Shown piece by piece: positions 4,698 to 16,810 of a DNA stretch of 33,456 bases. The stretch is from the IMG/VR virus record IMGVR_UViG_3300033997_000270, positions 1 to 33,456 of that record; one strand, 5' to 3'. Each line of letters starts with the position of its first letter. Within the stretch, counting starts at the first letter, position 1. This DNA comes from a virus. The position numbers and the translations under genes are program-made. The notes beneath the pieces were generated by a model, which saw only the letters and a list, made by a program, of their open reading frames with translations, made no database searches and was not told the origin of the DNA.

Positions 4698-5001
4698 GGA
4701 TGTTTCCCCAGTAGTTGCTGCCTACGTACACCTTGATCACGCCCCGCAGCGCTGCCGCATTGGCGGCAGCAGTCATCTCGCCGAACGTTACCTCGGGTCC
4801 ACTGCACAGGATCTCGCCTTCGTGTATGACGACACGCGTCTTGAGCTCCTGGCTCCACCCCCGGTTGGGGGCGAAGTTCATCCAGCGCATGAACTGGTTC
4901 ATGCGTGTCTCGCTGCGGCGCACGCGCTCGACGATCTCCTGAATCGGATCGCCGCCGTACTTGCCGTCTTCGTAGCCGTGAGGCCGTTTGTCTTCAGACA
5001 T
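4690..5001 (-). CDS. 103-residue protein, unknown function
   Basis: The start at ATG 5001 is supported by GGGAG seven bases upstream; a longer frame to 5115 lacks such a signal and would overlap the previous gene further. The first half is charged and helical (IQEIVERVRRSETRMNQFMRWMNF). The second half has beta-like segments (TRVVIHEGEILCSG, GVIKVYVGSNYWGN) separated by an alanine-rich helix (TAAANAAAL). It does not show the terminal signature of the neighbouring array family. It overlaps both neighbours by eight bases. Confidence 0.78.
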   Translation of the reverse strand: MSEDKRPHGYEDGKYGGDPIQEIVERVRRSETRMNQFMRWMNFAPNRGWSQELKTRVVIHEGEILCSGPEVTFGEMTAAANAAALRGVIKVYVGSNYWGNIHV

Positions 5002-5272
5002 GGATAGCTCCCAGCGCCAGTGCGGCGCACAGTGTTTCGAACGAATCGTAGGCGGCATAGAAGCACACGTAGTTCTGCCGCGATCTTGGTATTGTCGTAA
5101 CGGGCGAACGAACAACCCACGTGCCGTTGAACGAGCCTACGTAGATGACCCTGCCGAATCGCGAAGGGCCGCCTGTCAGCCAATACGCTCCTGCGAACCG
5201 TGACGTCGCTGTATTCATCCCGAGACTACGTAGAACTTGTAGCTGCTGGGGAGTAAAGAAGTCGCCGTTCAT
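4994..5272 (-). CDS. Array family protein (left end of the tandem array)
   Basis: A 92-residue protein with Q-Q-L-Q-V-L-R-S-L-G-M near the N-terminus, a Trp/Tyr/Gly-rich middle (AYWLTGG, YVGSFNGTWVV) and the C-terminal helix YDSFETLCAALALG. This order (L-x-x-L-G, beta-rich core, [FY]-x-[ST]-x-x-x-x-x-A-x-x-L) is the shared plan of the family. It is the leftmost member, so it marks the array boundary. ATG 5272 overlaps the TGA of the gene before it by four bases. Function unknown. Confidence 0.82.
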   Translation of the reverse strand: MNGDFFTPQQLQVLRSLGMNTATSRFAGAYWLTGGPSRFGRVIYVGSFNGTWVVRSPVTTIPRSRQNYVCFYAAYDSFETLCAALALGAIHV

Positions 5273-5565
5273 TTCGTCAGCTCCAGGTAAGCGACCATCG
5301 CTTCGAACGTGTCGAACGCGGCGACGATGCAGAAGTTGCGGGTGTCGTGCCCGCCGTTGCGTTCTTGCTCCGTCATCGACGGGCGCAGTACCCAGTGGTC
5401 TTTGTACATCGTCCCGTACAACTCTCGGTCACAGCACATGGCGCCGAACCAGGAAGCATTCATGTCCGTCACGTCGTCTGCACCGCACCAGAGGCAAACG
5501 TAGGCGTACCCCAAGGTCTTCAGCCTGGTCTTGTACGCCGCCGGTATACTCACGTGGACGCTCAT
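5269..5565 (-). CDS. Array family protein with cysteine pairs
   Basis: 98 residues. After an N-terminal R-L-K-T-L-G-Y-A-Y it has C-L-W-C-G and a later C-C, an unusual number of cysteines for this family that might bind metal. The middle contains HWVLRPS. The C-terminus is FDTFEAMVAYLELTK, the closest match to the neighbour at 4994 (YDSFETLCAALALG), so the two look like local duplicates. ATG 5565 overlaps the TGA of the 286-residue gene (ATGA). Confidence 0.82.
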   Translation of the reverse strand: MSVHVSIPAAYKTRLKTLGYAYVCLWCGADDVTDMNASWFGAMCCDRELYGTMYKDHWVLRPSMTEQERNGGHDTRNFCIVAAFDTFEAMVAYLELTK

Positions 5566-6422
5566 GCGAGCGCCCCGGTGAAGAAGGCCAGCACGTCCTT
5601 GTGCATGGCGCAGGCCTCGTTGAATGCCGCCTTGCGGGCGTGCGGGTCGGTACGCAGGCGGTCAGGCTCGTGCTGGCACAGGTGCTGCGACAGGCGCTTG
5701 GCGATCACGTCCAGCTGAGGGTCGGCGGTGAGGTTCAGCGACGGCAGCACTTCGGCCAGGTCGCGGGCGTTCTCTACCAGGCTGTCGCGGAACACGGTCT
5801 CGGGCTTCGCCAGGCGATCGATGAACGCCTCCAGCACCTTGGCCACCCGCTGGTAGGCATCGCCCACGGCGCTGGTCAGCGTGGCCGTGGTGGTGCGCTC
5901 GATCTCTGCCTGGACCCGGGCCAGCTCGTCCTCGCCGATCTCGACGCGGAAGTCGCCGGCGCACGGCAGCGGCAACACGTTCAGGCGGAAGTCGAACTTG
6001 CCGGCCAGCACGTCGGCGGTCGGGTAGTCGTCCTCGTTGAACAGGGTGCCCAGCAAGCGCTTGGCTTCCTGGCGGTGCAGCGGATAATCACCCAGCAGCT
6101 GGGCGACGGCGTTGTCGAACTCGGTCTTGAACTCGCCGATGCGCTGCATGTAGTCGAAGTAGCCCATGCTCGACAGGGCGCGCGGGCCGGCGTCGGACCA
6201 GGGCAGAGTGCAGCGGTAGTGGTAGTCGCGGGCCGAGCGCACCACCTTCTGCACGGTCTCCAGCGCGGAGCCGTCGATCAGCGACTTGTAGTAGGTGCCC
6301 TGGTTCTGCGCCAGCTGGTGGTTCGCAGCGACCTCGGACGTGGCCTTGCGGTCGATCTTGCGAGCAGTCCACTGCGACACGCGCAGGTCAACGAGCATGG
6401 CTTTGGTGGCAATGTGGGTCAT
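5562..6422 (-). CDS. 286-residue cytosolic protein, possible DUF3150-type partner of the MoxR/VWA genes
   Basis: It starts at ATG 6422 after the recurrent leader CTGACCGGAGA. It has no signal or membrane segment. It is largely helical, with L-V-D-L-R-V-S-Q-W-T-A-R-K-I-D near the start, Y-Y-K-S-L-I-D and S-A-R-x-Y-H-Y-R-x-T-L-P-W around residues 45-75, and a helical C-terminal half (VQAEIERTTTATLTSAV, LEAFIDRLAKPETVF). In many phages a protein of this size and pattern (I believe DUF3150) accompanies a MoxR ATPase and a VWA metallopeptidase-like protein. Both are present here, at 10790 and 9122. The family name is from memory and should be checked. The role is unknown. Confidence 0.7.
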   Translation of the reverse strand: MTHIATKAMLVDLRVSQWTARKIDRKATSEVAANHQLAQNQGTYYKSLIDGSALETVQKVVRSARDYHYRCTLPWSDAGPRALSSMGYFDYMQRIGEFKTEFDNAVAQLLGDYPLHRQEAKRLLGTLFNEDDYPTADVLAGKFDFRLNVLPLPCAGDFRVEIGEDELARVQAEIERTTTATLTSAVGDAYQRVAKVLEAFIDRLAKPETVFRDSLVENARDLAEVLPSLNLTADPQLDVIAKRLSQHLCQHEPDRLRTDPHARKAAFNEACAMHKDVLAFFTGALA

Positions 6423-6442
6423 GGTGTTTCTCCGGTCAGGGT

Positions 6443-6709
6443 TTAGTTCATCGTCAGTGCGGCGTACATCACCGCGGCTTGCAACTGGTCTGGTTCAAAC
6501 ACTAGCAAGGGCGGTCCTACAGGACCAAATTTTTTCGACTTGTGCACGTGCCACTGGCCGGTGCCAGCGGCGTTCGGCATCACGACGGCGGTCTCCGACG
6601 CGTAGCCGCAGAACTGAGTCTCGCCGTCGTAGCGGGTGATCGTGTACCACCCTTCGGGCAGCCACTCGGGTCGGTCTTCGGTCATTTCCACCACCACGAA
6701 CTCATTCAT
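6443..6709 (-). CDS. Divergent array family protein
   Basis: 88 residues. The N-terminus is acidic (VVEMTEDRPEWLPEGWYTI) and carries G-W-Y in place of the usual G-F/G-W. A core with GQWHVHKSKKF gives the central Trp strand. The end FEPDQLQAAVMYAALTMN matches the terminal-helix pattern, though without the usual Pro. It is followed by a 20-nt gap before the 286-residue gene, one of the few gaps in this region. ATG 6709 lies eight bases inside the preceding gene. Confidence 0.75.
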   Translation of the reverse strand: MNEFVVVEMTEDRPEWLPEGWYTITRYDGETQFCGYASETAVVMPNAAGTGQWHVHKSKKFGPVGPPLLVFEPDQLQAAVMYAALTMN

Positions 6710-7004
6710 AGGCCGGGTTGTATCCGTCCTGCTGGGTCAACATGAAGGCGACGGCGGCCGCAGCCGGCGATGGGAACCCACCGAGGATCGTCTTGGCCTT
6801 CTCCCTCGGCGAGCTGATAGTCGTGATCGCCCACAGCCCGTCGTCGAAATCGTCCCGCCAGATCCGCAGTGCCCGGCGCACCACCCGCCCATCGGGGTAG
6901 CGGAAGTCCACCACCCGGCGCCACGACGGTACGCCCTGGCGGTCGGAGCTGTGCAGCTGCCACTCCTCGGGCATCACCCAGAGGCTTTCCTGGTGGCTGT
7001 TCAC
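6702..7004 (-). CDS. Array family protein, GTG start
   Basis: 100 residues from GTG 7004, whose GTGA overlaps the stop of the preceding gene. It has PEEWQLHSS near the start, two Trp-containing strands (VPSWRRVVDF, GLWAITTI) and the terminal segment FPSPAAAAVAFMLTQQDG. That segment is a good match to the C-terminal helix of the members at 7001 and 7439. No catalytic residues are apparent. Confidence 0.8.
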   Translation of the reverse strand: MNSHQESLWVMPEEWQLHSSDRQGVPSWRRVVDFRYPDGRVVRRALRIWRDDFDDGLWAITTISSPREKAKTILGGFPSPAAAAVAFMLTQQDGYNPAYE

Positions 7005-7435
7005 GGCTTGAACCAGCTCGGCGGGAAAGCCTCCAGATCGGCCGCGCAGTATTTGCGCATGTCGTATTCGTACTTCCTCATGGCTGCCTGGTACTCAGCC
7101 ATGGACTGCCCCGGCTTGACGTTGCGCAAGGCGTCGTGGGCCATTCGCGCCAGGGACAAATCTGGCGTGTTGGCTTTTGCCGGCGCCAGCTCAGGGTTCA
7201 GCTCGACCGCCACCACTGCTGCCACCGGTGTCGGGTAGAACGTCATCGACCCTTCGAAGTGCCACTTGATCGCGCCGCTCACGGGCTTGGCTCGCAGCTT
7301 CGGCTGGCCTTCCTTCTGGAATGCAGCGCCTTCCACCAGATCGTAGCCGTGCTCGTACAGCTGGCGGACCCAGGCCCAGGCTTCGTCTTCGCTGGGCGCC
7401 CACATGTCGATCAGAAGTTTCATTTTCGCCTTCAT
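7001..7435 (-). CDS. Long array family protein with C-terminal extension
   Basis: 144 residues, about twice the common length. Residues 10-35 (MWAPSEDEAWAWVRQLYEHGYDL) closely resemble the N-terminus of the next gene upstream (NHAAPTVDEGWAWLRTMHERGW), so these two are paralogs. The family helix occurs internally as YPTPVAAVVAVELN, followed by a 55-residue charged extension (AEYQAAMRKYEYDMRKY) seen in no other member. The extension may be a fused helix that modifies the core. Confidence 0.8.
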   Translation of the reverse strand: MKAKMKLLIDMWAPSEDEAWAWVRQLYEHGYDLVEGAAFQKEGQPKLRAKPVSGAIKWHFEGSMTFYPTPVAAVVAVELNPELAPAKANTPDLSLARMAHDALRNVKPGQSMAEYQAAMRKYEYDMRKYCAADLEAFPPSWFKP

Positions 7436-7438
7436 GGT

Positions 7439-7855
7439 CTACCACCCTCGGGGTTCGGTGAACTCAGTGTCGTCGGCTTTAGCCTCGATCCGTTCTGTGT
7501 AACTGCGTATCGGCACCTTAGCCTTCGGCACCTTAGCCTTTGGGGGCACCGGCGGAATTTCGTCGGTTTCGACGAACAAATCCAGGGCAACTACGGCTGC
7601 GACCGGAGACGGGTAGGTCACTTTCTCGTCGTTCATGAGCGGCCTGCCGTTCCTGCACACAATCCAGCGGACTGCGCCGGCGACCAAGCAAGGCAGCATG
7701 TACTGGCCGTGTTGGTTGACGAACCCGGGGATCGTGTTCTCATCCCCCGGGCTCGTCAGAATCCAGCCACGCTCGTGCATGGTGCGGAGCCAGGCCCAGC
7801 CTTCGTCTACTGTCGGCGCGGCGTGGTTAACTAGTCTAGTTATCGGATCTTTCAT
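7439..7855 (-). CDS. Long array family protein, paralog of the adjacent gene
   Basis: 138 residues from ATG 7855. It has the DEGWAWLRTMHERGW segment, a beta-rich middle, YPSPVAAVVALDLF as the family helix, and a Pro/Lys-rich tail (PPVPPKAKVPKAKVP) before an acidic end. The codons for I-T-R-L-V-N near its start form a near-copy of the early-region palindrome, TAACTAG-A-CTAGTTA on the minus strand. The stop is separated from the next start by three bases. Confidence 0.8.
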   Translation of the reverse strand: MKDPITRLVNHAAPTVDEGWAWLRTMHERGWILTSPGDENTIPGFVNQHGQYMLPCLVAGAVRWIVCRNGRPLMNDEKVTYPSPVAAVVALDLFVETDEIPPVPPKAKVPKAKVPIRSYTERIEAKADDTEFTEPRGW

Positions 7856-8114
7856 CGCTCGCTACTCTGAAAAGGCCAGGGAAAATCAGGATCAGCTGGG
7901 CGTACGCGGCCTCCGCGTCGGGGAGCAGCGTGATGTCCACGTCGCCGACGATAATGCGCAGCTCGTCGCCCGTGGTCGTCGTGTGCAGCTGGATACGCCC
8001 GTCCGGTATTGGGTACGCGAGGTTCACCTCCAGCCGCGGCAGCCGGTCGTACATGATCTCGGCCGCGCTGGTGTTGGTGAAGCCCGTGTACGCCAGCATC
8101 CAGTTCTCAATCAT
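7836..8114 (-). CDS. Array family protein, beta-rich
   Basis: 92 residues. It opens MIENWMLAYTGF and has several predicted strands (RLEVNLAYPI, GRIQLHTTTTG, ELRIIVGDVDITLL). It then has the helix PDAEAAYAQLILIFPG, matching the family end except that Leu replaces the aromatic. The last ten residues are charged and overlap the next gene by 20 nt. It is one of the more divergent members and could be an unrelated protein that shares only the helix pattern. Confidence 0.72.
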   Translation of the reverse strand: MIENWMLAYTGFTNTSAAEIMYDRLPRLEVNLAYPIPDGRIQLHTTTTGDELRIIVGDVDITLLPDAEAAYAQLILIFPGLFRVASDERSDN

Positions 8115-8422
8115 TTCGGATCTCCCATCAGCTGCATCACGGCGTGGACCATCATCGGGTCAGGGTAGGGGCCAACGTCCCATGTGTCCCAGTCACGGTC
8201 GTCGTGGTAGCTGAACCCCCTGATGTGGTTCAGAGCTGGGCGCCAGGGGCGCCAGCGCCCACCCCACATACCCTGGTGCTTGCCCTGCAGGATCGGCACG
8301 ATGAAGCGGCCGCGGTGCTCACGGACAGGCATAGCGAACCGCTCGCGGGTGCCGTTATTCCGCCAGTCGTAGCCGAGCTTGCGCATGGCAACGCGCTGCT
8401 CCTTGGTGCTAGTCCAGATCAT
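8111..8422 (-). CDS. Array family protein, Trp-rich
   Basis: 103 residues beginning MIWTSTKEQRVAMRKLGYDW, with the L-G-Y variant of the family N-terminal motif. The middle is unusually rich in Trp and Arg (MWGGRWRPWRPALNHIRGF). The C-terminus is YPDPMMVHAVMQLMGDPK, containing the Tyr-x-x-Pro start of the helix and the G-D before the stop. It overlaps the following gene by four bases (ATGA) and the previous by 14. Confidence 0.78.
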   Translation of the reverse strand: MIWTSTKEQRVAMRKLGYDWRNNGTRERFAMPVREHRGRFIVPILQGKHQGMWGGRWRPWRPALNHIRGFSYHDDRDWDTWDVGPYPDPMMVHAVMQLMGDPK

Positions 8423-8690
8423 CTTTCGTCAACTCCCATGCGAACAGGGCTGCCTGCGGCGACTCGTGCCATTCGCCCAGCATCCCGAGCTTCCACAAGT
8501 CATTCGAGCAATGCAGGTTCACCGCATAATCGGGATGACCGAACCGTCGGTTGAGCCTGATATCGGTCACCCCTCTGTACGCGGTACTTATGTCGGCCCA
8601 GCCTTCAGCTGCTACCCAGTCGAGGTTTCGTTGCTTGCGTGTCTTCCACTGCAACGGCGTCAGCTGGCCCTTCGCCCACTTGGTCTTCAC
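8409..8690 (-). CDS. Array family protein, GTG start
   Basis: 93 residues from GTG 8690, with a strong GGGGGGTG ribosome binding site. That site is formed by the last codons of the preceding gene (L-G-G-A-Q). The N-terminal Q-R-N-L-D-W-V-A-A-E-G-W matches the family L-x-x-x-G-W element. The core contains RLNRRFGHPDYAVNL. The C-terminal helix is HESPQAALFAWELTKDDLD. Function unknown. Confidence 0.8.
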   Translation of the reverse strand: MKTKWAKGQLTPLQWKTRKQRNLDWVAAEGWADISTAYRGVTDIRLNRRFGHPDYAVNLHCSNDLWKLGMLGEWHESPQAALFAWELTKDDLD

Positions 8691-8914
8691 TGCGCACCCC
8701 CCAGCAGTGCGTAGGCTGCTGCGGCCTGGACCGTCTCGAACCGCACTGTCTCCCTTGATCCCTTAGTCCATGCCACCCAGCCTGGGCGCAGATCGAACTC
8801 TTTCTCGATGGCGGCGGGGAAATGGTCGTCGTAACGCTGTTCACCATGCGTCCAATAAAAAACGTCCGGGTTGTTCACCCACCCGTTCTCGATCAGCCAC
8901 TGCTCGTCGTTCAT
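8687..8914 (-). CDS. Array family protein
   Basis: 75 residues. The start MNDEQWLIENGWVNNPDVFYW is very like that of the upstream neighbour (KEWLRANGWTPMCEWWF), and the ends FETVQAAAAYALLGG and FPSVQAAVAWALLG match nearly position by position. These two adjacent genes are the clearest local duplicates in this part of the array. The core has RPGWVAWTKGS. ATG 8914 overlaps the preceding TGA. Confidence 0.85.
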   Translation of the reverse strand: MNDEQWLIENGWVNNPDVFYWTHGEQRYDDHFPAAIEKEFDLRPGWVAWTKGSRETVRFETVQAAAAYALLGGAQ

Positions 8915-9144
8915 TCCGGCGGTCCTAGTAGAGCCCAGGCCACAGCGGCCTGGACAGAAGGGAAAATCTTCCCGTGCTCAGACCCGGCGGGAAACCCCTG
9001 CCACACCAGACTACTGGCGTTCTGGCGAACCGCAGCGGGTTGGGGCTGGCTGACCCCTGTGCCTGGCGCAAACCACCACTCGCACATCGGCGTCCAGCCG
9101 TTGGCACGCAGCCATTCTTTGTCAGCGTTCGTCGAACTGGACAT
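8911..9144 (-). CDS. Array family protein next to the VWA gene
   Basis: 77 residues. It has D-K-E-W-L-R-A-N-G-W at the N-terminus, a Trp-rich segment (CEWWFAPGTG), VWQGFPAG in the core, and FPSVQAAVAWALLGPPE at the end. Its ATG 9144 lies 23 nt inside the C-terminal codons of the metallopeptidase/VWA gene. The array therefore continues directly from that gene with no promoter between them. Confidence 0.83.
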   Translation of the reverse strand: MSSSTNADKEWLRANGWTPMCEWWFAPGTGVSQPQPAAVRQNASSLVWQGFPAGSEHGKIFPSVQAAVAWALLGPPE

Positions 9145-10261
9145 TGATCGTGGTCCCCCACGGCGACTTGACGTCGGTGGTGCTGAGCCACAACACGTTC
9201 GGGCGCTCGTCCCCGAACGGCGTGTAGCCGTCGGTCAGCACGATCGTCAGCTGGGCGTCCGGGGCGTTCTTCTCGACCCAGTCCAGGCCAACGGTCATGT
9301 CGGTCCCACCACCGCCCACGCGCTTGGCGCTGGTGCGGACAGCTTCCGGGTCGGGGCGCTCGAAGTAGTCCACGTGGTTCACGTCGGCGTCGACGTAGAT
9401 CACGATCAGCTCGCTCGGGCACACGTCGTTGACCGCGCCGCACACCTCGCCGAAGAACTGCCGCAGCTCCTTGGCGCCGATCGAACCCGAGGTGTCGATC
9501 TGGAACACCAGCTTGCGCATGGCGCCGTCGCTGTACAGCCCGGGCAGGTAGGTGCCCTGCGCCACGAAGCGGCGGTTCGGCCTGGCGAACGTGTAGTCGG
9601 AGCGTGCCTTCTCGGTGAGATAGACCTTGAGCTGTTCCTGCCAGGCGACCACCGGGTTCATCACCTCGTCGATCAGCTCGCGGATGCCGGCCGGCAGTTT
9701 GCCCATGGCCTTGGCCACCTGCGCCGCCTTGGCGATAGTCGCCTTGGCTTTTGCCTGGGCCGCCGGACCCTGGTCCGGGGCGTCCATGAGGTCGTCGTCC
9801 AGCGGGTTGCCGTTACCGTGGTCCGCACCTCCGCCACCCGGCGGGTCGGGCGGCAGCTGGGCATAGACCTGCTCGCTGGTCATGCCGGCGTAGGCCTGGC
9901 TGTGCAGCACGCCAGCGGGCAACGAACCTTTCTCCTTGAAGATGATGTCGTTGATCACGTAGTCGGCGGCATGATTCCAGCGCTGCGGGCTGCGGCCCTG
10001 GCGGCGCCACGGATGCATCAGGGCGATGTGCATGCACTCGTGCTTGAGCACGCCCACGGCTTCGGCCAGCGGGAGCTTGTTGAAGTTGACCGGGTTGACG
10101 TACAGATTCGCCCCGTCGGTGGCCGCTTGCCACAGCTTGCGTCCGTCCGGGAGTTCCTGGGTCTCGATCACCTTCAGGCTGAACATGATCGTCGCGTAGA
10201 ACGGGTGATTGATCACCAGCTGCGTCTTGGCCTTTTCGAAAATCGAGTGCTTCTTAATCAC
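9122..10261 (-). CDS. Putative metallopeptidase with C-terminal VWA-like domain
   Basis: A 379-residue protein. The N-terminal domain has an H74-E-C-M-H78 zinc-binding motif and W95-N-H-A-A-D100 as a likely third ligand. A glycine/acidic linker follows (about 140-170). The C-terminal VWA-like domain has D256-T-S-G-S260, T320-D321 and D344, the metal ion dependent adhesion site set. This arrangement is known in the family containing DUF2201 domains and is usually encoded with a MoxR ATPase, found here two genes upstream. GTG 10261 is the start, with GAGGTGA upstream. Such MoxR/VWA pairs are thought to act as chaperone or remodelling complexes. The phage substrate is unknown. Confidence 0.92.
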   Translation of the reverse strand: MIKKHSIFEKAKTQLVINHPFYATIMFSLKVIETQELPDGRKLWQAATDGANLYVNPVNFNKLPLAEAVGVLKHECMHIALMHPWRRQGRSPQRWNHAADYVINDIIFKEKGSLPAGVLHSQAYAGMTSEQVYAQLPPDPPGGGGADHGNGNPLDDDLMDAPDQGPAAQAKAKATIAKAAQVAKAMGKLPAGIRELIDEVMNPVVAWQEQLKVYLTEKARSDYTFARPNRRFVAQGTYLPGLYSDGAMRKLVFQIDTSGSIGAKELRQFFGEVCGAVNDVCPSELIVIYVDADVNHVDYFERPDPEAVRTSAKRVGGGGTDMTVGLDWVEKNAPDAQLTIVLTDGYTPFGDERPNVLWLSTTDVKSPWGTTINVQFDER

Positions 10262-10789: not shown

Positions 10790-11899
10790 TCACACCCCAG
10801 AGATCAGGCTGGCGTTGCTGATGGCCCACTTGTTGAAGGTGCTGGTCTGAGACAGGGTGCTGTCGCGACGCAGCGAGTCCTGGATGCTGAGCACGGCCAT
10901 CTCCGGGCGCCCTGCCTTGGCGAAACGCTCCAGGTAGTTGAACACGCTCTCCTGGTTCTCGTGGGTGGTGCGAGCACCCAGGGCGACAGCCACGGCGTAC
11001 TGAGTCGCGCTGTCGTCCGGCAACGGGGCGCTGTGCGGGTTGAGCAGGATCGCCTCGATGCTCGGCATTTGCAGCCAGACGTCGCGGAAGGCGATGTACT
11101 CAGCCGCCGGGCCCTTACCCACAGATCCCATGGCCAGGTTGTACATGCGGTCAGCCGGCAGCTTGGCCTTCTCGTAGCGGTCCACCATCACCCAGCTGCG
11201 CTCGGTGGCGAATGCGTCGCCCTCCAGCTTCTTGGTGACGTGGTCGTCGAACGTGTTGAGCAGGTCCGGGCGCATCGCCATGAACGCCAGCAGGCAGGTC
11301 TCGATGTTGCCTTGGGACAGGCCCCAGCTACGCCAGCAGTCGAGGTCCGACTCGACGTCGATGTGGGTGGCACGGTTGGCCAGCGGCGTCGGCATCTTGA
11401 ACACCACGCCGCCGTCGGTCATGCGGTTACCGGTCATGACGATGCTCCAGCCCGGCTTCATGCGCTTGCTACCGATGCGACGGTCGTGCGTCAGCTGGTA
11501 GGCCGCGGCCTGCACGGACATGGGCGCCGAGACGATCTCCTCCAGGGCGAGGATGCCGTAGTCCGGCACGTCCTCGCGGCCGATGAAGGGGAACCAGTCG
11601 GGCACCAGGCGATCCTGGGTGCCGTGCACGCTCGCCACCGGCAGGCCGCCGATGTCCACCGGGTCGCACTGCGACAGGCGCACGTCGATGAAGCCGAAGC
11701 CGTCCTTCATGCCGAAGCCTTCGGCCGGCTGATCGCCGTACTCGATCACGCCCGCCTTGAGGCCCAGGTCTTCGGCGCGCTGCGCCGAGGCTTGGAGGAT
11801 GGCAGCGGACTTGCCGATGCCGGGAGCTCCGCGCACCATGAGCACGGTGCTGGCGATGTTGGCGTCACGGATGTGGGCGATCAGGTCATTTACGTTCAT
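10790..11899 (-). CDS. MoxR-type AAA+ ATPase
   Basis: A 369-residue ATPase. Walker A is G24-A-P-G-I-G-K-S31, Walker B is G-I-L-A-L-E-E121, and sensor 1 is M-T-G-N-R159. The segment RLSQCDPVDIGGLPV resembles the substrate loop of MoxR proteins, which typically remodel partners through a VWA protein; the VWA gene is at 9122. ATG 11899 follows GGAGATACACC. A candidate promoter (11973-12000) and one palindrome copy (11918-11935) lie just upstream, so this gene probably starts its own transcript as well as receiving read-through. Confidence 0.93.
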   Translation of the reverse strand: MNVNDLIAHIRDANIASTVLMVRGAPGIGKSAAILQASAQRAEDLGLKAGVIEYGDQPAEGFGMKDGFGFIDVRLSQCDPVDIGGLPVASVHGTQDRLVPDWFPFIGREDVPDYGILALEEIVSAPMSVQAAAYQLTHDRRIGSKRMKPGWSIVMTGNRMTDGGVVFKMPTPLANRATHIDVESDLDCWRSWGLSQGNIETCLLAFMAMRPDLLNTFDDHVTKKLEGDAFATERSWVMVDRYEKAKLPADRMYNLAMGSVGKGPAAEYIAFRDVWLQMPSIEAILLNPHSAPLPDDSATQYAVAVALGARTTHENQESVFNYLERFAKAGRPEMAVLSIQDSLRRDSTLSQTSTFNKWAISNASLISGV

Positions 11900-11935: not shown

Positions 11936-11972
11936 TGCGGGTTGGTGGAGCTAAATCTCAAACTGTAGGCAT

Positions 11973-12000: not shown

Positions 12001-12005
12001 GTTTT

Positions 12006-12269
12006 CTAGGATGCGTTGCTGCTTAGTGCCACGAAAGCGATGACCGCCTCGGGCGATTCGAACGTACCCTTGAGGACAAAGCCGGTGACTGCGTGCGCGT
12101 CCCACTGTAGAAGACGGACGGTGGTCCAGTACAGGCTGTACGTACCGCGACCTGCGTAGCGCCGAACCTCCCAGGTGCCGCCCTTAACGTGCTTGCGGTA
12201 GTAGCGCGGGGCGTCGTTTTTCTTGTGCCACCCTGTGGCGCGGAACAGGTTGGGTTTTTGCTCAGCCAT
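12006..12269 (-). CDS. Array family protein, duplicate of the next gene
   Basis: 87 residues from ATG 12269 (GGAGGCCGAA upstream, formed by the preceding gene's last codons). It is basic in the first half (HKKNDAPRYYRKHVKGG) and has TWEVRRYAGRGTYSLYW strands. It ends GTFESPEAVIAFVALSSNAS. The nine-residue GTFESPEAV block is identical in the adjacent gene, and the DNA there is almost the same. It precedes the candidate promoter of the MoxR gene, so it ends one segment of the array. Confidence 0.85.
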   Translation of the reverse strand: MAEQKPNLFRATGWHKKNDAPRYYRKHVKGGTWEVRRYAGRGTYSLYWTTVRLLQWDAHAVTGFVLKGTFESPEAVIAFVALSSNAS

Positions 12270-12483
12270 TTCGGCCTCCTTGTGTCAGTGCCACGTAGGC
12301 GATGACCGCCTCGGGCGATTCGAAAGTTCCACAAAAGCGTGTGAGGCCGCCGTCCAGAGCGATCAGCTTCCACCCGTTTTCGACGAGGATAGTCAGCCAG
12401 TAGCCACGGGGCCGTCCACGCAGCGTGTAGGACTGCCCCGTGGCGCAGGACCAGCCAGCCTCCAGGAACAGCGCGCTAGCCAT
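12262..12483 (-). CDS. Array family protein, duplicate of the previous gene
   Basis: 73 residues from ATG 12483. It has ALFLEAGW at the N-terminus, RGYWLTILVENGWKLIALDGG in the core, and GTFESPEAVIAYVALTQGG at the end. The DNA for the terminal helix, 12287-12324, matches 12025-12062 at all but two of 38 positions, a sign of recent duplication or gene conversion. N-terminal halves of the pair differ strongly. Confidence 0.85.
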   Translation of the reverse strand: MASALFLEAGWSCATGQSYTLRGRPRGYWLTILVENGWKLIALDGGLTRFCGTFESPEAVIAYVALTQGGRNG

Positions 12484-12739
12484 GCAGGTCGCTCCTCATC
12501 TGGAAGTAGACGCAGAGCGCGGCCGCGGTTGGATACACGCCGAGCGACATGGTCTCCACCCGCCTGGCGCTGCCTGTGTTACGGCAGGTGACCTCGTTGA
12601 GATACCACTGGTCGTCGATACCGCGCGCCGCCGAGTAGGTGGTACTCACTGTGGCTCCTTTCCGCATCCACACCCAGTCCTCTCCGTTCCAGTGGCTCTT
12701 CTTCCAGCCGAACGACAGGAACGGCTCTTCGTCGGTCAT
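12476..12739 (-). CDS. Array family protein
   Basis: 87 residues. I chose ATG 12739, whose ATGA overlaps the preceding stop; a longer frame to 12844 would lie inside that gene. It begins MTDEEPFLSFGWKKSHW, with SFGW as the family motif, continues with DWVWMRKGATVS and WYLNEVTCRN strands, and ends VYPTAAALCVYFQMRSD. The end fits the helix pattern with Ala for Pro. Confidence 0.8.
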   Translation of the reverse strand: MTDEEPFLSFGWKKSHWNGEDWVWMRKGATVSTTYSAARGIDDQWYLNEVTCRNTGSARRVETMSLGVYPTAAALCVYFQMRSDLHG

Positions 12740-12981
12740 GACTGCCACCCCTTGATCTCCGCGGCAATGAACGCCGCCAGCGCGGTTTCGCCGTAGGCGA
12801 CCTCGCTCCAGCCGCCGTTGACTTTCACCGCCCATGCCATCCACAGAGTCTCGTGCCTGACGCTGGGTTGGTCTCTCCCATGCGGCATCGGCGCCATCAC
12901 ACAGCGCCCACGAAGGCCCGTCCAGTCGCCGTCCGCGTCAACCATGAACCCCGCCTCAATGAGCAGCCGCGAGTCGTCCAT
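12736..12981 (-). CDS. Array family protein, D-G-D-W type
   Basis: 81 residues from ATG 12981. It has LLIEAGFMVDADGDW at the N-terminus, identical in form to the G-F-x-x-D-x-D-G-D-W block of genes 13677 to 14406. That block places it with the D-G-D-W subgroup although the RNase H gene separates them. The core is TLWMAWAVKVNGGW, and the end YGETALAAFIAAEIKG. It overlaps the RNase H gene by 26 nt. Confidence 0.85.
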   Translation of the reverse strand: MDDSRLLIEAGFMVDADGDWTGLRGRCVMAPMPHGRDQPSVRHETLWMAWAVKVNGGWSEVAYGETALAAFIAAEIKGWQS

Positions 12982-13447
12982 CGCGCACCTCCCTCATCAC
13001 CCGACGGGACTCCTTGTCGCACCACGCGTTGCACCACTGGCGAGGCTCCCACACGCCGGCATGGGCCTTGACGTGGTTGACCTTGAGCCAGAACTGGTGC
13101 TCGGCCTGGGCCCGCTGCAGCTTCGACAGCAGAGTGGCGATCTCCGGCCTGGCCGTGAGGCGGTTGGCCGCGCCCTCCAGCACCTGCTTGACCGCCAGGC
13201 AGTCGGTGACCAGCACCAGCCGGCGCGACGGCCCCTGGCGCAGCTCCGGGCCTATCACCGGGTGCCGGTACAGGCGGTCGAACGCATGCAGCGCGGCCAG
13301 CAGCTCGGCGCCGCCCGAGCAGGCGGCGTCAATGGCGAAGCCCTCTTTGTAGAACGTGCTCCCAGTCCTGGCCCAGAACGCAGCGCCGCCGGCGCGCGTG
13401 TGGGTACAGAAACTGGCGTCCGTGAACAGGGTTATGTTTTCGATCAT
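12956..13447 (-). CDS. RNase H-like nuclease
   Basis: A 163-residue RNase HI-type enzyme that would cleave RNA in RNA-DNA hybrids, for example removing primers or R-loops. Catalytic positions are visible: D10 in LFTDAS, E48 in GGAELLAAL, D82 in LVTDCLAV and D144 in AWCDKES, with H129 in VKAHAG. The length and order match the bacterial and phage RNase H family. ATG 13447 follows CTGACTGGAGATTCGCG, in which the binding site is formed by the last codons of the preceding array gene. It is unusual to find it inside the array, away from the polymerase. Confidence 0.92.
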   Translation of the reverse strand: MIENITLFTDASFCTHTRAGGAAFWARTGSTFYKEGFAIDAACSGGAELLAALHAFDRLYRHPVIGPELRQGPSRRLVLVTDCLAVKQVLEGAANRLTARPEIATLLSKLQRAQAEHQFWLKVNHVKAHAGVWEPRQWCNAWCDKESRRVMREVRDGRLAAAH

Positions 13448-13680
13448 CGCGAATCTCCAGTCAGTAGTGCGCGGGCCACGAGCACCAGTGGATGCTCGCC
13501 GGGTTTACTTCGCATCGACTGCCCTTCCATGGGCCAGAAGTCCCATTCGACACCGTCGAAGTTACATTTCTCGTCGTACAGCATTCCTGCTGGTGACGAC
13601 CAAAAGTAGCCTCCGCGCCAGTTGTACGGCATGTCCTCCTTTTCCCACCCCGCTGCACGCAGGTCGTCTTCAACGCTCAT
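13444..13680 (-). CDS. Array family protein, L-L-T-G-D terminus
   Basis: 78 residues from ATG 13680, four bases inside the preceding gene. It has DDLRAAGWEKED at the N-terminus, NWRGGYFWSSPAG and VEWDFWPMEG in the core, and EHPLVLVARALLTGDSR at the end. The codons of L-T-G-D are CTGACTGGAGAT and supply the ribosome binding site of the RNase H gene. Acidic and aromatic residues dominate the middle. Confidence 0.85.
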   Translation of the reverse strand: MSVEDDLRAAGWEKEDMPYNWRGGYFWSSPAGMLYDEKCNFDGVEWDFWPMEGQSMRSKPGEHPLVLVARALLTGDSR

Positions 13681-13934
13681 AGCGTGTCTCCAAGCAGTAG
13701 CAACGCCGCGGTGTACGCTGCGAGCGGCGACACGCCATCCGCTATGCGCTCCTGGTAATACTGGACCTGCCACAGGGTTGGGTGGCGTTCCACGCGACCC
13801 GAGCGTAGCCACGGTACGTTACTGGGTCGGATCAAGAATACGTGGATGCCGTCTACGCGGCTGTTAGACACCCAGTCGCCCTCGACATCGCGCTCGAATC
13901 CGATACGCTTTAGCTCTCTTTCCTCACTGTTCAT
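13677..13934 (-). CDS. Array family protein, D-G-D-W subgroup
   Basis: 85 residues. It has RELKRIGFERDVEGDWVSNS, then VHVFLIRP-like strand IHVFLIRPSNVPW, TLWQVQYYQ, and SPLAAYTAALLLLGDTL. It is most like the two genes upstream (RVFLLRP, WTVRY, TPLAAYGAAIL), so this trio arose by tandem duplication. GGAGAC from its G-D codons serves the next gene. ATG 13934 lies 11 nt inside the preceding gene. Confidence 0.88.
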   Translation of the reverse strand: MNSEERELKRIGFERDVEGDWVSNSRVDGIHVFLIRPSNVPWLRSGRVERHPTLWQVQYYQERIADGVSPLAAYTAALLLLGDTL

Positions 13935-14172
13935 GTATCACCCCGAAAAGTATCGCCGCTCCATACGCCGCGAGCGGCGTGGCAGCTTTGGCTATGTTGC
14001 GGCCGTTGTACCTTACGGTCCAGAAAACTGGGTCGCGGTTATGGCTGTCGTGCCGCGCAGTCGGACGGAGCAGAAAGACCCGGGGACTACGCGCGCCGAA
14101 GCACCAGTCGCCGTCGTGGTCGAGGAACAAGCCGAGGCGTTTGAGCTCGGCGATCTCGTCTTCAATTCCCAT
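13924..14172 (-). CDS. Array family protein, D-G-D-W subgroup
   Basis: 82 residues from ATG 14172 with GAGGTGGCCG directly upstream; longer starts would overlap the preceding gene without a better signal. It shows EIAELKRLGLFLDHDGDW, RVFLLRPTARH, VFWTVRYNGRN and ATPLAAYGAAILFG. It is a textbook member of the subgroup: acidic loop, Arg-rich strand, Trp strand, terminal helix. Confidence 0.87.
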   Translation of the reverse strand: MGIEDEIAELKRLGLFLDHDGDWCFGARSPRVFLLRPTARHDSHNRDPVFWTVRYNGRNIAKAATPLAAYGAAILFGVIHEQ

Positions 14173-14413
14173 CGGCCACCTCCGGCAGCAAGGACTGGCC
14201 TGCGTACGCAGCCAGTGGCGTGGGCGCAAAGAAAGACCCGCGCTTGCGGTTGGTGCACTGCCACTGCGAACCGCGCACCAGGCCGTAATGAAGATTCGGA
14301 CTGAACAACCAGGTGCGGGTGCCCCGGTTAATCCAGTCACCGTCCTGATCCTCGACGAACCCCAGCGCGGCGAGCTGCTCGCGCTCTTCGGCGGTAATCA
14401 GTTGGCTATCCAT
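14162..14413 (-). CDS. Array family protein, D-G-D-W subgroup
   Basis: 83 residues from ATG 14413, with GGGGAGGATCG upstream. It has EEREQLAALGFVEDQDGDW, TRTWLFSPNLHYG, SQWQCTNRKRG and TPLAAYAGQSLLPE. The last codons GAG GTG G provide the binding site of the next gene. Compared with neighbours the final helix is interrupted by Gly-Gln. Confidence 0.86.
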   Translation of the reverse strand: MDSQLITAEEREQLAALGFVEDQDGDWINRGTRTWLFSPNLHYGLVRGSQWQCTNRKRGSFFAPTPLAAYAGQSLLPEVADGN

Positions 14414-14642
14414 CGAGCGATCCTCCCCGCAGCATCCACAAAGCTAATGCGGCCAGTGGCCTATCGGCGCCGACCAAAGCCTCACCGAATCTACCGGCTT
14501 CCCATCTGGGTGGCTTCTCCCACTCGCGGGGGCGGAACAGACAGACGGATCGCACGAGACCATTGCTCCAATCCCCGTCCAGGCCCTCGACAAACCCCAG
14601 TTCGAGGAGCTTCTGGCGCTCCTCGGTGGTGATTTTGCGCAT
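14406..14642 (-). CDS. Array family protein, D-G-D-W subgroup, start next to a palindrome
   Basis: 78 residues from ATG 14642. The ribosome binding site GGAG is the four-base spacer of the palindrome at 14646-14663, so translation may depend on whether that element is folded or bound. The protein has EERQKLLELGFVEGLDGDW, SVCLFRPREW, PRWEAGRFG and RPLAALALWMLRGG. Confidence 0.86.
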   Translation of the reverse strand: MRKITTEERQKLLELGFVEGLDGDWSNGLVRSVCLFRPREWEKPPRWEAGRFGEALVGADRPLAALALWMLRGGSLDG

Positions 14643-14645
14643 GAT

Positions 14646-14663
14646 TTAACTACTCCTAGTTAA
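14646..14663. promoter_or_regulatory. Palindrome copy 2 (TTAACTA-CTCC-TAGTTAA) carrying a Shine-Dalgarno in its spacer
   Basis: Perfect seven-base arms at 14646-14652 and 14657-14663. Read on the minus strand it is TTAACTAGGAGTAGTTAA, then ATC and the ATG at 14642. The stop codon TAG of the upstream gene also lies in the element (14656-14658). The same arrangement occurs at 19496-19513. Confidence 0.82.
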
Positions 14664-14877
14664 TGGACAGCTGCCACGCGGCGAAGACCGCCAGCGGGTG
14701 CTGCCCGGGCTCGCCGCTACGTCCTGGGCTTTGGCCGAAACGGCCTGTACTCCATGTCTTCCCGGTTCGCACGACATAGAACTCGCTCTGCCTGAAATAG
14801 GCTATGCCCTCCATCGCATCGACGTATTTCACCGGCTCCCAGCCGCAGTCCAACAGGTCCAGCTCTTCTTGGGTCAT
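14656..14877 (-). CDS. Array family protein
   Basis: 73 residues from ATG 14877 (overlapping the preceding TGA). It begins MTQEELDLLDCGWEPVKY and has a Phe/Tyr strand (GIAYFRQSEFYVV), then TWSTGRFGQSPGR. It ends GQHPLAVFAAWQLSIN, where A-A-W-Q-L resembles the R-W-Q-L of the next gene. Its terminal N-stop codons AAC TAG are part of palindrome copy 2. Confidence 0.85.
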   Translation of the reverse strand: MTQEELDLLDCGWEPVKYVDAMEGIAYFRQSEFYVVRTGKTWSTGRFGQSPGRSGEPGQHPLAVFAAWQLSIN

Positions 14878-15134
14878 GGCTGATACCCCGCCAGTTGCCA
14901 GCGCACGTAGAGCGCGACCGGCGATTCATCTGGCGCTCCAGTGGCCAGTCGCCCGCTGCCCTGCAGCCACAACTCCCAGCCCCCGTGGCCGTTGAACTTC
15001 GGCGGGTAGAGGCATAGCAAATATGGATGCGTTTCGATGTGTTTCTCCCATCGCCGCTCGCTTATGTCCCGGTAATGCATGCCGTCGAGGTAGAACCCGT
15101 ACGCCCTGAGCGCATTGAAATCGTCGTCAGTCAT
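14874..15134 (-). CDS. Array family protein, S-P-V-A-L-Y subgroup
   Basis: 86 residues from ATG 15134, supported by CTGACTGGAGAC and a four-base overlap. It has DDFNALRAYGFYLDG, a His/Glu/Arg-rich middle (RRWEKHIETH), GGWELWLQGSGRLATGAP, and ESPVALYVRWQLAGYQP. The block G-[RW]-x-V/L-A-x-G-A-P-x-E-S-P-V-A-L-Y is shared almost exactly with the gene at 15131. Confidence 0.86.
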   Translation of the reverse strand: MTDDDFNALRAYGFYLDGMHYRDISERRWEKHIETHPYLLCLYPPKFNGHGGWELWLQGSGRLATGAPDESPVALYVRWQLAGYQP

Positions 15135-15382
15135 GTCGCGTCTCCAGTCAGCAGCCAGCGCGCGTAGAGCGCCACAGGGCTCTCGCCTGGTGCACCGCGC
15201 GCCACCAGCCTGCCTTGGCGCCATACATCCCAGCCGGGATGGTCATTGTCTTCCGGCGCGTAGATCGACGTTCGGTGTCCGCATACGTTGTGGCGTCTGT
15301 AAGCCCTGCGTACCTCGTGGTCCGCAACGGGCGTGAAGCCGTAGGCGGCCAGCGCCTCGCCGAACTCTTTCCACTCGCTCAT
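15131..15382 (-). CDS. Array family protein, S-P-V-A-L-Y subgroup
   Basis: 83 residues from ATG 15382. It shows FGEALAAYGFTPVADHE, an Arg-rich segment (RRAYRRHNVCGHR), GWDVWRQGRLVARGAPG, and ESPVALYARWLLTGDAT. The W-x-x-G-R-L-x-x-G-A-P block and the terminal helix identify it as the nearest paralog of 14874. CTGACTGGAGAC at its 3' end is the binding site of that gene. Confidence 0.87.
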   Translation of the reverse strand: MSEWKEFGEALAAYGFTPVADHEVRRAYRRHNVCGHRTSIYAPEDNDHPGWDVWRQGRLVARGAPGESPVALYARWLLTGDAT

Positions 15383-15636
15383 AGGAACCCCCGCAGCTTC
15401 AACGACGCTAGCATCGCGTCGAGCGTTTCGTAGTACTCGTCGAAGTTGTGCCTGTCGATGTCTCGCGTCGGCCAGTAGATGTTCCACATGCGTCTCTTTT
15501 CTCCGGTACGGGCGCGATCTGCGACGGACACACCCGGCGGGTACAGCCACGCGCTGGCCCAGCCGATGTCCTTGGTGTACTTTCCGTTACGCCAGTGATA
15601 GAACCCCGCCGCGTTCAGCTTTTCTTCGTCGGTCAT
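15379..15636 (-). CDS. Array family protein, atypical terminus
   Basis: 85 residues from ATG 15636 with GGAGGG upstream. It has EEKLNAAGFYHWRNGKY, ASAWLYPPGVSVADR, RRMWNIYWPTRDIDR, and EYYETLDAMLASLKLRGFL. The final helix keeps A-x-x-A-S-L-x-L-x-G but lacks the Pro at its start. The motif W-L-Y-P-P recurs as V-Y-P-P in 16123 and L-Y-P-P in 14874. Confidence 0.84.
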   Translation of the reverse strand: MTDEEKLNAAGFYHWRNGKYTKDIGWASAWLYPPGVSVADRARTGEKRRMWNIYWPTRDIDRHNFDEYYETLDAMLASLKLRGFL

Positions 15637-15914
15637 AGCAAACCCTCCAGGGCCAGGCATGCCAGGATCGCGGGCAGCGGACGGTAGTCCGGCTCGTCGT
15701 AGCTCGCGGGAAACTGGCCGCGTGCGGGCATCGTCACGAGAAATCCGCTGGCGAGTGGGTCGTTTGTCTTCTGTATGATCAACCTGGCTATCCCTTCGCC
15801 GCCGTGGCTACGCTGGACGTAGCGGTAGGTAGTTTCGCCGAGCCAGGTCTCGCGCTTAAATCCGTACTGAGCCAGGATGTCACGCTCGGCCTGGCTCATC
15901 AGTTCTACTTTCAC
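15633..15914 (-). CDS. Array family protein, GTG start
   Basis: 93 residues. I chose GTG 15914, which overlaps the previous TGA (GTGA) and follows GGAGGGCTGGAT. ATG 15899 is the alternative. It contains AERDILAQYGFKRETWLG, YRYVQRSHGG, RLIIQKTNDP, LVTMPARGQFP, and RPLPAILACLALEGLL. The codons of L-E-G (CTG GAG GGT) form the binding site of the next gene. Confidence 0.83.
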   Translation of the reverse strand: MKVELMSQAERDILAQYGFKRETWLGETTYRYVQRSHGGEGIARLIIQKTNDPLASGFLVTMPARGQFPASYDEPDYRPLPAILACLALEGLL

Positions 15915-16126
15915 ATCCAGCCCTCCAGTTTCGCTGCGACGATCAGAGCCACGGGGTCGCCTTCGCCGAACACGTCCCACACCAAATCATCGGTGTAAAG
16001 GTTCCACCCGCTCAGGCCATTTCTATCCAGCCAGTGGGTCGGCTTGCCGTTGACGCGGCGCACGAACCCGTTTGAGGTCATGGGCTTGCACTCGAAAAAC
16101 CCAAACTCGGCCAGCTTCTCGTTCAT
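15911..16126 (-). CDS. Array family protein, D-P-V-A-L subgroup
   Basis: 71 residues, among the shortest members. It has EKLAEFGFFECKP, RRVNGKPTHWLDR, GWNLYTDDLVWDVFG and GDPVALIVAAKLEGWM. R-V-N-G-[KH]-P is shared with the gene at 16123, and D-P-[VI]-[AS]-L-[IV] with the next two upstream. The minimal length suggests that this represents the core domain. Confidence 0.87.
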   Translation of the reverse strand: MNEKLAEFGFFECKPMTSNGFVRRVNGKPTHWLDRNGLSGWNLYTDDLVWDVFGEGDPVALIVAAKLEGWM

Positions 16127-16371
16127 AGATCACCCACCAATACGGCTGCAGTTATGAGGCTCACCGGGTCATCGCCGTGCTTGAAATAGACCGGGTTCTT
16201 GCTGACGTACAGCGACCAGTACCGGCGCTCTTGCTGCCCTTCGTACTCTGGCAAGAACGGCGGGTACACGGCCGCCACGGGGTGGCCGTTCACGCGCTTG
16301 CACATGCAGTCGGCTTCCTTGTAGAACCCGTGGGCGGCCAGGGCCGCCAGCTGTTCGTCGGTCAGGTTCAC
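16123..16371 (-). CDS. Array family protein, D-P-V-A-L subgroup, GTG start
   Basis: 82 residues from GTG 16371, overlapping the previous stop (GTGA). It shows DEQLAALAAHGFYKEAD, KRVNGHPVAAVYPP, RRYWSLYVSKNP and GDDPVSLITAAVLVGDL. The DNA for L-A-A-H-G-F (16325-16344) is identical over 20 bases to that of the gene at 16580, though the rest of the two genes has diverged. Confidence 0.87.
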   Translation of the reverse strand: MNLTDEQLAALAAHGFYKEADCMCKRVNGHPVAAVYPPFLPEYEGQQERRYWSLYVSKNPVYFKHGDDPVSLITAAVLVGDL

Positions 16372-16589
16372 AAATCACCTCGCATTGTCGCCGCTGCGAC
16401 GAGTGCTATGGGGTCGGGGCCTTCGTAGAACGGCCCGAGGCCCGCAAGACTCCACACCCTGGCCGCTCGGAGGTAGACCAGCGTCGCTTTCAGCGTACCG
16501 TCAGGCCGTCGAGCGGCCCAGATGGTCCCACCGTGGAGCCTGAACCCGTAGGCGGCGAGCGCTTCTTTCTCTTCGTCGGTCAGTCCCAT
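16368..16589 (-). CDS. Array family protein, D-P-V-A-L subgroup
   Basis: 73 residues from ATG 16589 (GGAGGGTGTGGT upstream). It has DEEKEALAAYGFRLHGG, WAARRPDGTLKATLVYL, ARVWSLAGLGPFYEG and DPIALVAAATMRGDL. The pattern W-S-L-x-x-x-x-x-x-x-x-G-x-D-P aligns with 16123. No charged catalytic cluster is visible. Confidence 0.86.
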   Translation of the reverse strand: MGLTDEEKEALAAYGFRLHGGTIWAARRPDGTLKATLVYLRAARVWSLAGLGPFYEGPDPIALVAAATMRGDL

Positions 16590-16810
16590 ACCACACCCTC
16601 CAGAATCGCCCTGGTTACCAGCACCACGGGGCATGGCCCCGTATACGGCTGGACATCACCGGTGACCATCCATAGGCGCTGGCTGGTCAGGTACTGGACG
16701 ATCGCGATCACCTTGTCCAGGTCGTTGCGCTTGACCCAATAGCTCGACAGCTTGTCACGCACGAACCCGTGGGCGGCCAGGGCGTCCTGCTGTTCCTGCG
16801 TCAGGTCCAT
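16580..16810 (-). CDS. Array family protein, D-P-V-A-L subgroup
   Basis: 76 residues from ATG 16810, behind the strongest ribosome binding site of the array, AAGGAGGTAACCG. It contains EQQDALAAHGFVRDK, YWVKRNDLDKVIAIVQYL, QRLWMVTGDVQPYTG and PCPVVLVTRAILEG. It is the first clear member in the direction of transcription, and its site lies within the tail codons of the gene before it. Confidence 0.87.
   Translation of the reverse strand: MDLTQEQQDALAAHGFVRDKLSSYWVKRNDLDKVIAIVQYLTSQRLWMVTGDVQPYTGPCPVVLVTRAILEGVVWD

What the first reader, a model, noticed from the sequence alone, without database searches (positions are those of the whole stretch)
4994..16810. A tandem family of about 30 small proteins fills much of the early region
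Some 30 minus-strand genes (4994-5565, 6443-9144, 10450-10788, 12006-12981, 13444-16810) encode mostly 70-140 residue proteins with the same order: an N-terminal L-x-x-x-G-[FWY] element, one to three Trp-containing strands, and a C-terminal helix starting [FY]-x-[ST]-P or [STD]-P-[LV]-A, with A-x-x-A-x-x-L spacing. Examples of the end are YPSPVAAVVALDLF, FESPEAVIAFVAL, SPLAAYTAALLLLG and DPVALIVAAKLEG. This is seen directly by reading the translations. So many tandem paralogs in a compact phage genome is unusual and suggests selection for diversity, as in anti-defence, host takeover or decoy proteins. The function is unknown. A helix-sheet-helix fold like phage ABA-sandwich proteins is a guess.
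Basis: partly seen in the sequence, partly recalled or inferred. Interest (0 to 1): 0.87.

Follow-up and report, generated by a model that had tools for sequence, protein, structure and literature searches.

The report
Phage array of ~30 small paralogous proteins
One environmental bacteriophage devotes about an eighth of its genome to some 30 small, early, mutually related proteins of an undescribed family that was duplicated gene by gene and turns over fast between related phages, the pattern expected of a toolkit for handling the host and its defences, although no function has been shown.

Summary
Thirty minus-strand genes (71-144 aa), packed with 4-20 bp overlaps, share an N-terminal L-x-x-x-G-[FWY] helix, Trp-rich strands and a C-terminal helix. 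With each gene and its neighbours left out of the profile, 21 of 30 outscore all 253 other window ORFs. T24 has no support; T05, T16, T22, T28 and T30 are weak. Two subgroups (T13, T25) are predicted with good confidence as the same helix-sheet-helix order. No member credibly matches Pfam, PHROGs, NCBIfam, the PDB or 50,697 isolate phages. The window belongs to a circular ~60.6 kb phage genome; its nearest isolate, Pseudomonas phage Rollin, lacks the family. Six related uncultured phages carry 2 to about 13 members in gaps between the same core genes (MoxR ATPase, VWA, 286-aa protein, ligase, exonuclease, PolA). Best hits are mostly the adjacent gene (18 of 30, 2 expected). Between two close relatives these genes are gained or lost and diverge to 44-57% identity while core genes stay at 83-96%. 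Another relative carries an unrelated small-protein array in the same place. Most likely: early accessory effectors, probably inhibitors of host proteins or defences (inferred). ABA-sandwich membership is not supported by sequence.

The parts
16580..16810 (-). T01, 76 aa, family member
   Evidence: E 2.7e-5
16368..16589 (-). T02, 73 aa (internal ATG)
   Evidence: E 7.7e-4
16123..16371 (-). T03, 82 aa
   Evidence: E 0.002
15911..16126 (-). T04, 71 aa
   Evidence: E 2.9e-5
15633..15899 (-). T05, 88 aa; layout fits, weak profile support
   Evidence: E 0.76
15379..15636 (-). T06, 85 aa
   Evidence: E 0.009
15131..15382 (-). T07, 83 aa
   Evidence: E 3.7e-7
14874..15134 (-). T08, 86 aa
   Evidence: E 1.4e-8
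14656..14877 (-). T09, 73 aa
   Evidence: E 9.8e-4
14406..14642 (-). T10, 78 aa; palindrome around its Shine-Dalgarno
   Evidence: (E 2.4e-4)
14162..14413 (-). T11, 83 aa
   Evidence: E 1.3e-6
13924..14172 (-). T12, 82 aa
   Evidence: E 0.011
13677..13934 (-). T13, 85 aa; structure predicted (pLDDT 88, pTM 0.78)
   Evidence: E 0.023 with T12 and T14 left out
13444..13680 (-). T14, 78 aa
   Evidence: E 2.4e-4
12956..13447 (-). RNase H (core gene between array blocks)
   Evidence: PF00075
12736..12981 (-). T15, 81 aa
   Evidence: E 2.2e-5
12476..12739 (-). T16, 87 aa; weak profile support
   Evidence: E 0.68
12262..12483 (-). T17, 73 aa
   Evidence: E 8.2e-4
12006..12269 (-). T18, 87 aa
   Evidence: E 3.1e-6
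10790..11899 (-). MoxR-like ATPase (core gene)
   Evidence: phrog_1297 ATPase, E 2.7e-79
10450..10788 (-). T19, 112 aa
   Evidence: E 0.011
9122..10261 (-). VWA / DUF2201 protein (core gene)
   Evidence: PF13203, PF09967
8911..9144 (-). T20, 77 aa
   Evidence: E 2.8e-4
8687..8914 (-). T21, 75 aa
   Evidence: E 0.0011
8409..8690 (-). T22, 93 aa; weak
   Evidence: E 0.2
8111..8422 (-). T23, 103 aa
   Evidence: E 1.1e-5
7836..8114 (-). T24, 92 aa; membership NOT supported by sequence
   Evidence: E 2.9
7439..7855 (-). T25, 138 aa; domain structure predicted (pLDDT 86.5, pTM 0.78)
   Evidence: E 1.1e-4
7001..7435 (-). T26, 144 aa
   Evidence: E 0.012
6702..7004 (-). T27, 100 aa (GTG start)
   Evidence: E 6.1e-4
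6443..6709 (-). T28, 88 aa; weak
   Evidence: (E 0.044)
5562..6422 (-). Conserved 286-aa protein of no named family (core gene; 463 relatives in IMG/VR)
5269..5565 (-). T29, 98 aa; paralogue of T30
   Evidence: E 4.6e-5 with T30; E 0.018
4994..5272 (-). T30, 92 aa; paralogue of T29, weakly linked to the rest
   Evidence: E 0.28
118..2196 (-). PolA-type DNA polymerase (core gene used to find relatives)
14646..14663 (.). Operator-like palindrome (T)TAACTA-N4-TAGTTA(A), one of six in the early region

Best explanation
The 30 genes are a lineage-specific expansion of one small alpha-beta-alpha domain inside the early operon of a ~60.6 kb Caudoviricetes phage. Shown: homology of most members; a shared predicted fold order in two subgroups; tandem duplication as the main source of copies; placement in gaps between conserved replication and early genes; gain, loss and fast divergence between close relatives; absence from the nearest isolate. 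Inferred: the copies are accessory early effectors, each adapted to a different host protein, most likely inhibitors of defence systems or host-takeover factors. The fold serves as a tolerant scaffold and the variable middle strands and loops carry specificity. Translational coupling through 4-bp stop/start overlaps would deliver the set together early in infection.
For: Family. Fold: T13: H3-10, five strands, H70-84; T25: two N-terminal helices, two long and two short strands, H84-95. Tandem origin: 18/30 best hits are the adjacent gene against 2.0 expected, 0 of 10,000 permutations. Accessory turnover: L008 against L009, where the family genes between ligase and exonuclease number 5 against 3, identity is 44-57% against 83-96% for core genes, and dN/dS 0.37-0.86 against 0.05-0.19. 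Dispensable: none in Pseudomonas phage Rollin and none in the records of L006 or L047. Independent expansions in relatives: G003 has its own closely related trio. Location: same strand and gene run as the polymerase, exonuclease, HNH and RNase H genes. Crowding of small unknown genes near anti-defence genes is reported for known mobile elements (PMC7648647).
Against: No member resembles any known anti-defence or takeover protein by sequence, and no PDB fold matches. Charges vary from pI 4.2 to 10.3, so a single mode such as DNA mimicry is unlikely. dN/dS stays below 1. The timing of expression was not measured. A function in DNA metabolism shared by all copies is not excluded.
Confidence: 0.55

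Rival explanations
1. The paralogues do one shared job: they assemble together or act as interchangeable subunits of a phage replication or DNA-processing complex, and copy number follows dosage or hetero-oligomer needs.
For: They are embedded among replication and MoxR/VWA genes. A 31st copy in the same genome, outside the window, is fused to a Cys-rich tail that is also seen in two relatives.
Against: Number and sequence change faster than any core gene, and Rollin, with a 47% identical polymerase, has none. A shared complex should constrain the copies.
Confidence: 0.15
2. The copies are mostly slightly useful or neutral products of recombination-driven duplication that persist because early small genes cost little.
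For: Adjacent copies are the closest, and some pairs keep similar DNA at conserved ends (58 nt at the 5' ends of T01-T03, 44 nt at the 3' ends of T17/T18).
Against: All 30 frames are intact, compact and mostly GC3-rich. Orthologous pairs in relatives show dN/dS below 1. About 13% of the genome is a large cost for neutral cargo.
Confidence: 0.12
3. The proteins are nucleic-acid-binding domains like double-stranded-RNA-binding domains, used to shield or sense RNA or DNA during infection.
For: The helix-strands-helix order resembles a dsRBD, and several weak PDB hits of T13 are dsRBDs (2l6m, 2khx, 1x47).
Against: Those hits are not significant (E at least 1.3, TM-score at most 0.33). 23 of 30 members have a pI below 7, and no basic signature is conserved.
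Confidence: 0.08
4. The array is a set of decoys or substrates that saturate a host protease, sensor or chaperone through numbers rather than specificity.
Against: A decoy needs conserved surface features, but mean column identity is only 12-15%.
Confidence: 0.06

Closest known systems
Anti-defence gene clusters / anti-CRISPR neighbourhoods in phages and mobile elements (for example PMC7648647)
   Same: Runs of small accessory genes of unknown function, variable between relatives, with operator-like palindromes nearby.
   Different: Known clusters hold unrelated small families side by side. Here most genes belong to one family with one predicted fold order. No member matches a known inhibitor, and no Aca-type gene was identified next to the array.
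   Same: Predicted helix-sheet-helix layout and an Ala/Leu-rich C-terminal helix.
   Different: No sequence match for any member; folds not superposed.
NinX / DUF2591 (Pfam PF10765)
   Same: Small early phage protein that ends in a Pro-Leu-x-Ala-Ala type helix.
   Different: hhalign probability at most 1.9% against every subgroup, at the level of the control pairs; usually one copy per phage (656 places in 653 records).
Small early host-takeover proteins of Pseudomonas and T4-like phages (from general knowledge)
   Same: Many small early genes, poorly conserved and often dispensable in the laboratory.
   Different: Those sets are mostly unrelated to each other; an expansion of ~30 copies of one domain is not something I know of. 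Literature searches here found no precedent, but coverage is partial.

Membership tests
Phage_ABA_S (PF18066) | match to the Pfam profile | tested here: not met
   No member at E<=1; no match at E<=10 in this genome, G003 or G004.
Phage_ABA_S (PF18066) | alpha/beta/alpha sandwich fold | tested here: inconclusive
   Helix-sheet-helix predicted for T13 and T25; no ABA_S structure was compared and none was named among the Foldseek hits shown.
NinX (PF10765) | match to the profile or a profile-profile link | tested here: not met
   No match in the window record; hhalign at most 1.9% with a 9-sequence NinX alignment.
Double-stranded-RNA-binding domain | significant fold match | tested here: not met
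   Best dsRBD hits E at least 1.3, TM-score at most 0.33.
Double-stranded-RNA-binding domain | basic RNA-binding surface | tested here: not met
   23 of 30 members have pI below 7; surfaces not modelled.
Anti-CRISPR / anti-defence proteins | sequence homology to a known inhibitor | tested here: not met
   No Pfam, NCBIfam or PHROGs family matched by any member beyond chance level. PADLOC holds defence, not anti-defence, models and gave only isolated hits.
Anti-CRISPR / anti-defence proteins | accessory, fast-evolving small early genes | tested here: met
   Turnover and divergence, placement. Early timing inferred from synteny.
Anti-CRISPR / anti-defence proteins | inhibits a bacterial defence system | not testable with these tools
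   Needs an experiment.
Single paralogous family (the claim itself) | profile similarity between subgroups above non-family ORFs | tested here: met
   not met for T24, weak for T05, T16, T22, T28, T30.
Single paralogous family (the claim itself) | same predicted fold in different subgroups | tested here: met
   Two subgroups only, compared by order of elements, not by superposition.

The most novel reading that the evidence does not exclude
Phages of this group use a 'scaffold library' strategy: each lineage amplifies one small-protein scaffold in the same early-region slots and diversifies the copies into dozens of host-interaction effectors. The scaffold itself differs between lineages: the T fold in this phage and six relatives, and an apparently unrelated U family of about eight members in L047. 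Several of these phages also have their own dispersed operator-like palindrome.
Probability: 0.4. Interest if true: 0.8.

Novelty: new variant of a known kind. Interest (0 to 1): 0.66.

Why it matters
Small early phage genes are usually a patchwork of unrelated orphans, which makes them hard to study. Here one scaffold appears about 30 times in one genome and a few to about 13 times in relatives, with natural copies at every level of divergence. If the copies hit different host targets, the array is a ready-made set for mapping what a phage must disarm, and a way to find unknown defences. It also shows that many 'orphan' early proteins can be far relatives that single-sequence searches miss.

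Tried and rejected
Direct database matches: Pfam, PHROGs, NCBIfam and PADLOC gave only isolated chance-level hits, each in a single member. PDB sequence search gave one chance hit. tblastn of all 30 proteins joined found nothing credible in isolate phages (best E 0.1, inside a primase). Foldseek of two models found no significant match in BFVD (both) or PDB (T13 only); a weak match of T25 to a 'restriction alleviation protein Lar' entry (E 0.34, 48 columns) was not taken as evidence. NinX was tested because its C-terminal helix looks alike; rejected by profile. DNA mimicry was rejected as a general mode because pI runs from 4.2 to 10.3. A host clue from genome contigs failed (no relative of the polymerase). 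A scan of IMG/VR with the family itself was not possible: no stretch conserved enough. I first took T24 as orthologous to a conserved gene of the relatives (L008:2359-2715); the score does not support it.
Full report
WHAT IS THERE. The window is a fragment of an uncultured virus record. A second IMG/VR contig of 60,596 bases matches it exactly over the stretches compared, and the two overlap in a way that closes a circle of about 60.58 kb (arithmetic from the coordinates). The plus strand to the right holds terminase, portal-size and capsid genes. The minus strand holds a compact early region: PolA-type polymerase, HNH protein, HTH protein, 3'-5' exonuclease, a conserved 286-aa protein without a named family, a VWA/DUF2201 protein, a MoxR-like ATPase and RNase H. 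Between these genes lie the 30 small genes of the finding. I trimmed over-long starts to internal starts with a Shine-Dalgarno-like leader. Thirteen neighbour pairs overlap by 4 bases. The genes add up to 8.1 kb, 24% of the window and 13% of the genome.

IS IT A FAMILY. The motif counts are far above shuffled sequences and above other ORFs of the same window. Three profile tests agree. A profile built only from other phages finds nine window ORFs at E<0.1, and all nine are T genes. A jackknife that leaves out each gene and both its neighbours puts 21 of 30 above every one of 253 other ORFs, and T06, T13 and T29 behind one only; T05, T16, T22, T28 and T30 are weak and T24 is unsupported. In an all-against-all hhalign of subgroups with control genes, the 24 best pairs are all family pairs, most of them aligned over most of their length. 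The recurrent best non-members, 16755-17213 and 4690-5115, may be degenerate further members; this was not followed up.

FOLD. AlphaFold2 on T13 (32 sequences) gives pLDDT 88.2 and pTM 0.78 with helix, five short strands, helix. On the T25 domain (15 sequences) it gives pLDDT 86.5 and pTM 0.78 with an extra N-terminal helix and then the same order. I could compare only the order of elements. Foldseek finds no significant match for T13 in BFVD or the PDB, nor for T25 in BFVD. The PDB chains listed include several double-stranded-RNA-binding domains, which share the helix-strands-helix order, but scores are at chance level and most members are acidic.

RELATIVES. Thirty-six IMG/VR loci encode a related polymerase; the close ones are about 48-57% identical. 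Members occur in L005, L007, L008, L009, L010 and L043 (the last reached through the 286-aa protein), placed between the same core genes. Counting by profile and by eye, the genome of L008 has up to about 13, that of L007 about 12, that of L005 about 4 and the partial contig L043 about 7. These counts are softer than the count in the window. Pseudomonas phage Rollin (terminase 60%, polymerase 47.5% identical) has none; one short low-scoring ORF that a lax iteration pulled in was discarded. The distant carriers of the 286-aa protein (about 38% identical) gave no credible hit. A 31st member in the same genome lies just beyond the window, fused to a Cys-rich tail that recurs in relatives.

HOW IT EVOLVES. 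Within the window 18 of 30 best hits are the adjacent gene, against 2.0 expected and 0 of 10,000 permutations as high. Relatives show their own tandem groups, for instance three genes in the genome of L007. L008 and L009 are about 84-93% identical in most core DNA, yet between ligase and exonuclease one has five family genes and the other three. The matched pairs are 44-57% identical in protein with dN/dS 0.37-0.86, while core genes are 83-96% identical with dN/dS 0.05-0.19. Family genes next to the VWA gene evolve more slowly (82-86%), so there is an older, steadier layer and a fast layer.

A PARALLEL. L047, a relative without T genes, has about eight small genes of its own, most of them upstream of the MoxR-VWA genes, ending in a shared Trp-containing helix. 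They are supported by a jackknife and show no profile link to T. The place therefore seems to favour amplification of small early proteins whatever the scaffold. One example is not a rule.

HOW IT MOST LIKELY WORKS. Shown: family, tandem origin, fast turnover, accessory status. Inferred: early expression (strand, gene run, neighbours), specificity carried by the variable middle, and targets among host defence or metabolism. Small variable accessory genes clustered in an early region are the usual signature of counter-defence or takeover sets; crowding of small unknown genes around known inhibitors is described in PMC7648647. I give this 0.55. The main rival is a shared phage-internal function (0.15).

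NOVELTY. The kind (small early accessory genes) is known. The family is not in the libraries or isolate phages searched here, and the degree of amplification of one scaffold in a mid-size phage is unusual. I found no precedent in the literature that I could search, which is partial. I therefore file it as a new variant of a known kind.

LIMITS. Host unknown. Counts in relatives depend on thresholds. Two structure models only. No expression or function data. The alignments are shallow and divergent, so E-values near 0.01 should be read through the control counts, not alone.

Noticed in passing
window 11919, 14647, 19497, 21144, 21672, 22485: Six exact copies of the palindrome TAACTA-N4-TAGTTA, all in the early region and none in the rest of the genome (0 expected by shuffling). 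At 14647 and 19497 it surrounds the Shine-Dalgarno of the next gene. Looks like a repressor operator array.
   Followed up: partly
L042/L043 (TCCCTA-N3-TAGGGA, 8 and 6 copies), L047 (GTCCTA-N2-TAGGAC, 11), L132 (GTCCCT-N5-AGGGAC, 7), L045 (TCACGA-N3-TCGTGA, 4), L099 (ATTAAC-N4-GTTAAT, 13), L015 (GTTAGG-N6-CCTAAC, 8): Several related phages carry their own dispersed palindrome, often at gene boundaries; 11 of 114 loci over 8 kb have at least four copies of one exact 6+6 palindrome, none after shuffling.
   Followed up: partly
L047:1897-6597 and 11482-12018: A different family of about eight small proteins (shared C-terminal helix, as in TVEEAVAWLRMVAAMHG) in the place where relatives carry T genes; no detectable relation to T.
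   Followed up: partly
L131:11978-12778 (same genome, outside the window), L007:10546-11049, L013:3400-3855: A T-like domain fused to a Cys-rich tail (C-x-C...C-x-x-C-T-H-P-G-N-P...W-E) of no Pfam or PHROGs family; conserved in several relatives.
   Followed up: partly
window 5562-6422: A 286-aa protein with 463 relatives in IMG/VR found from two peptide patterns, near MoxR and VWA genes, that matches no Pfam or PHROGs family: a widespread unnamed phage protein.
   Followed up: no
window 17519-17569: A 51-base stretch 96% identical to Pseudomonas alcaligenes phages CRC2 and CL, inside ORF 17057-18001, in an otherwise dissimilar genome; a possible recent exchange and a hint of a Pseudomonas-like host.
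   Followed up: no
window 16755-17213 and 4690-5115: The non-member ORFs that most often score best against the family profile; may be decayed or distant further members.
   Followed up: no
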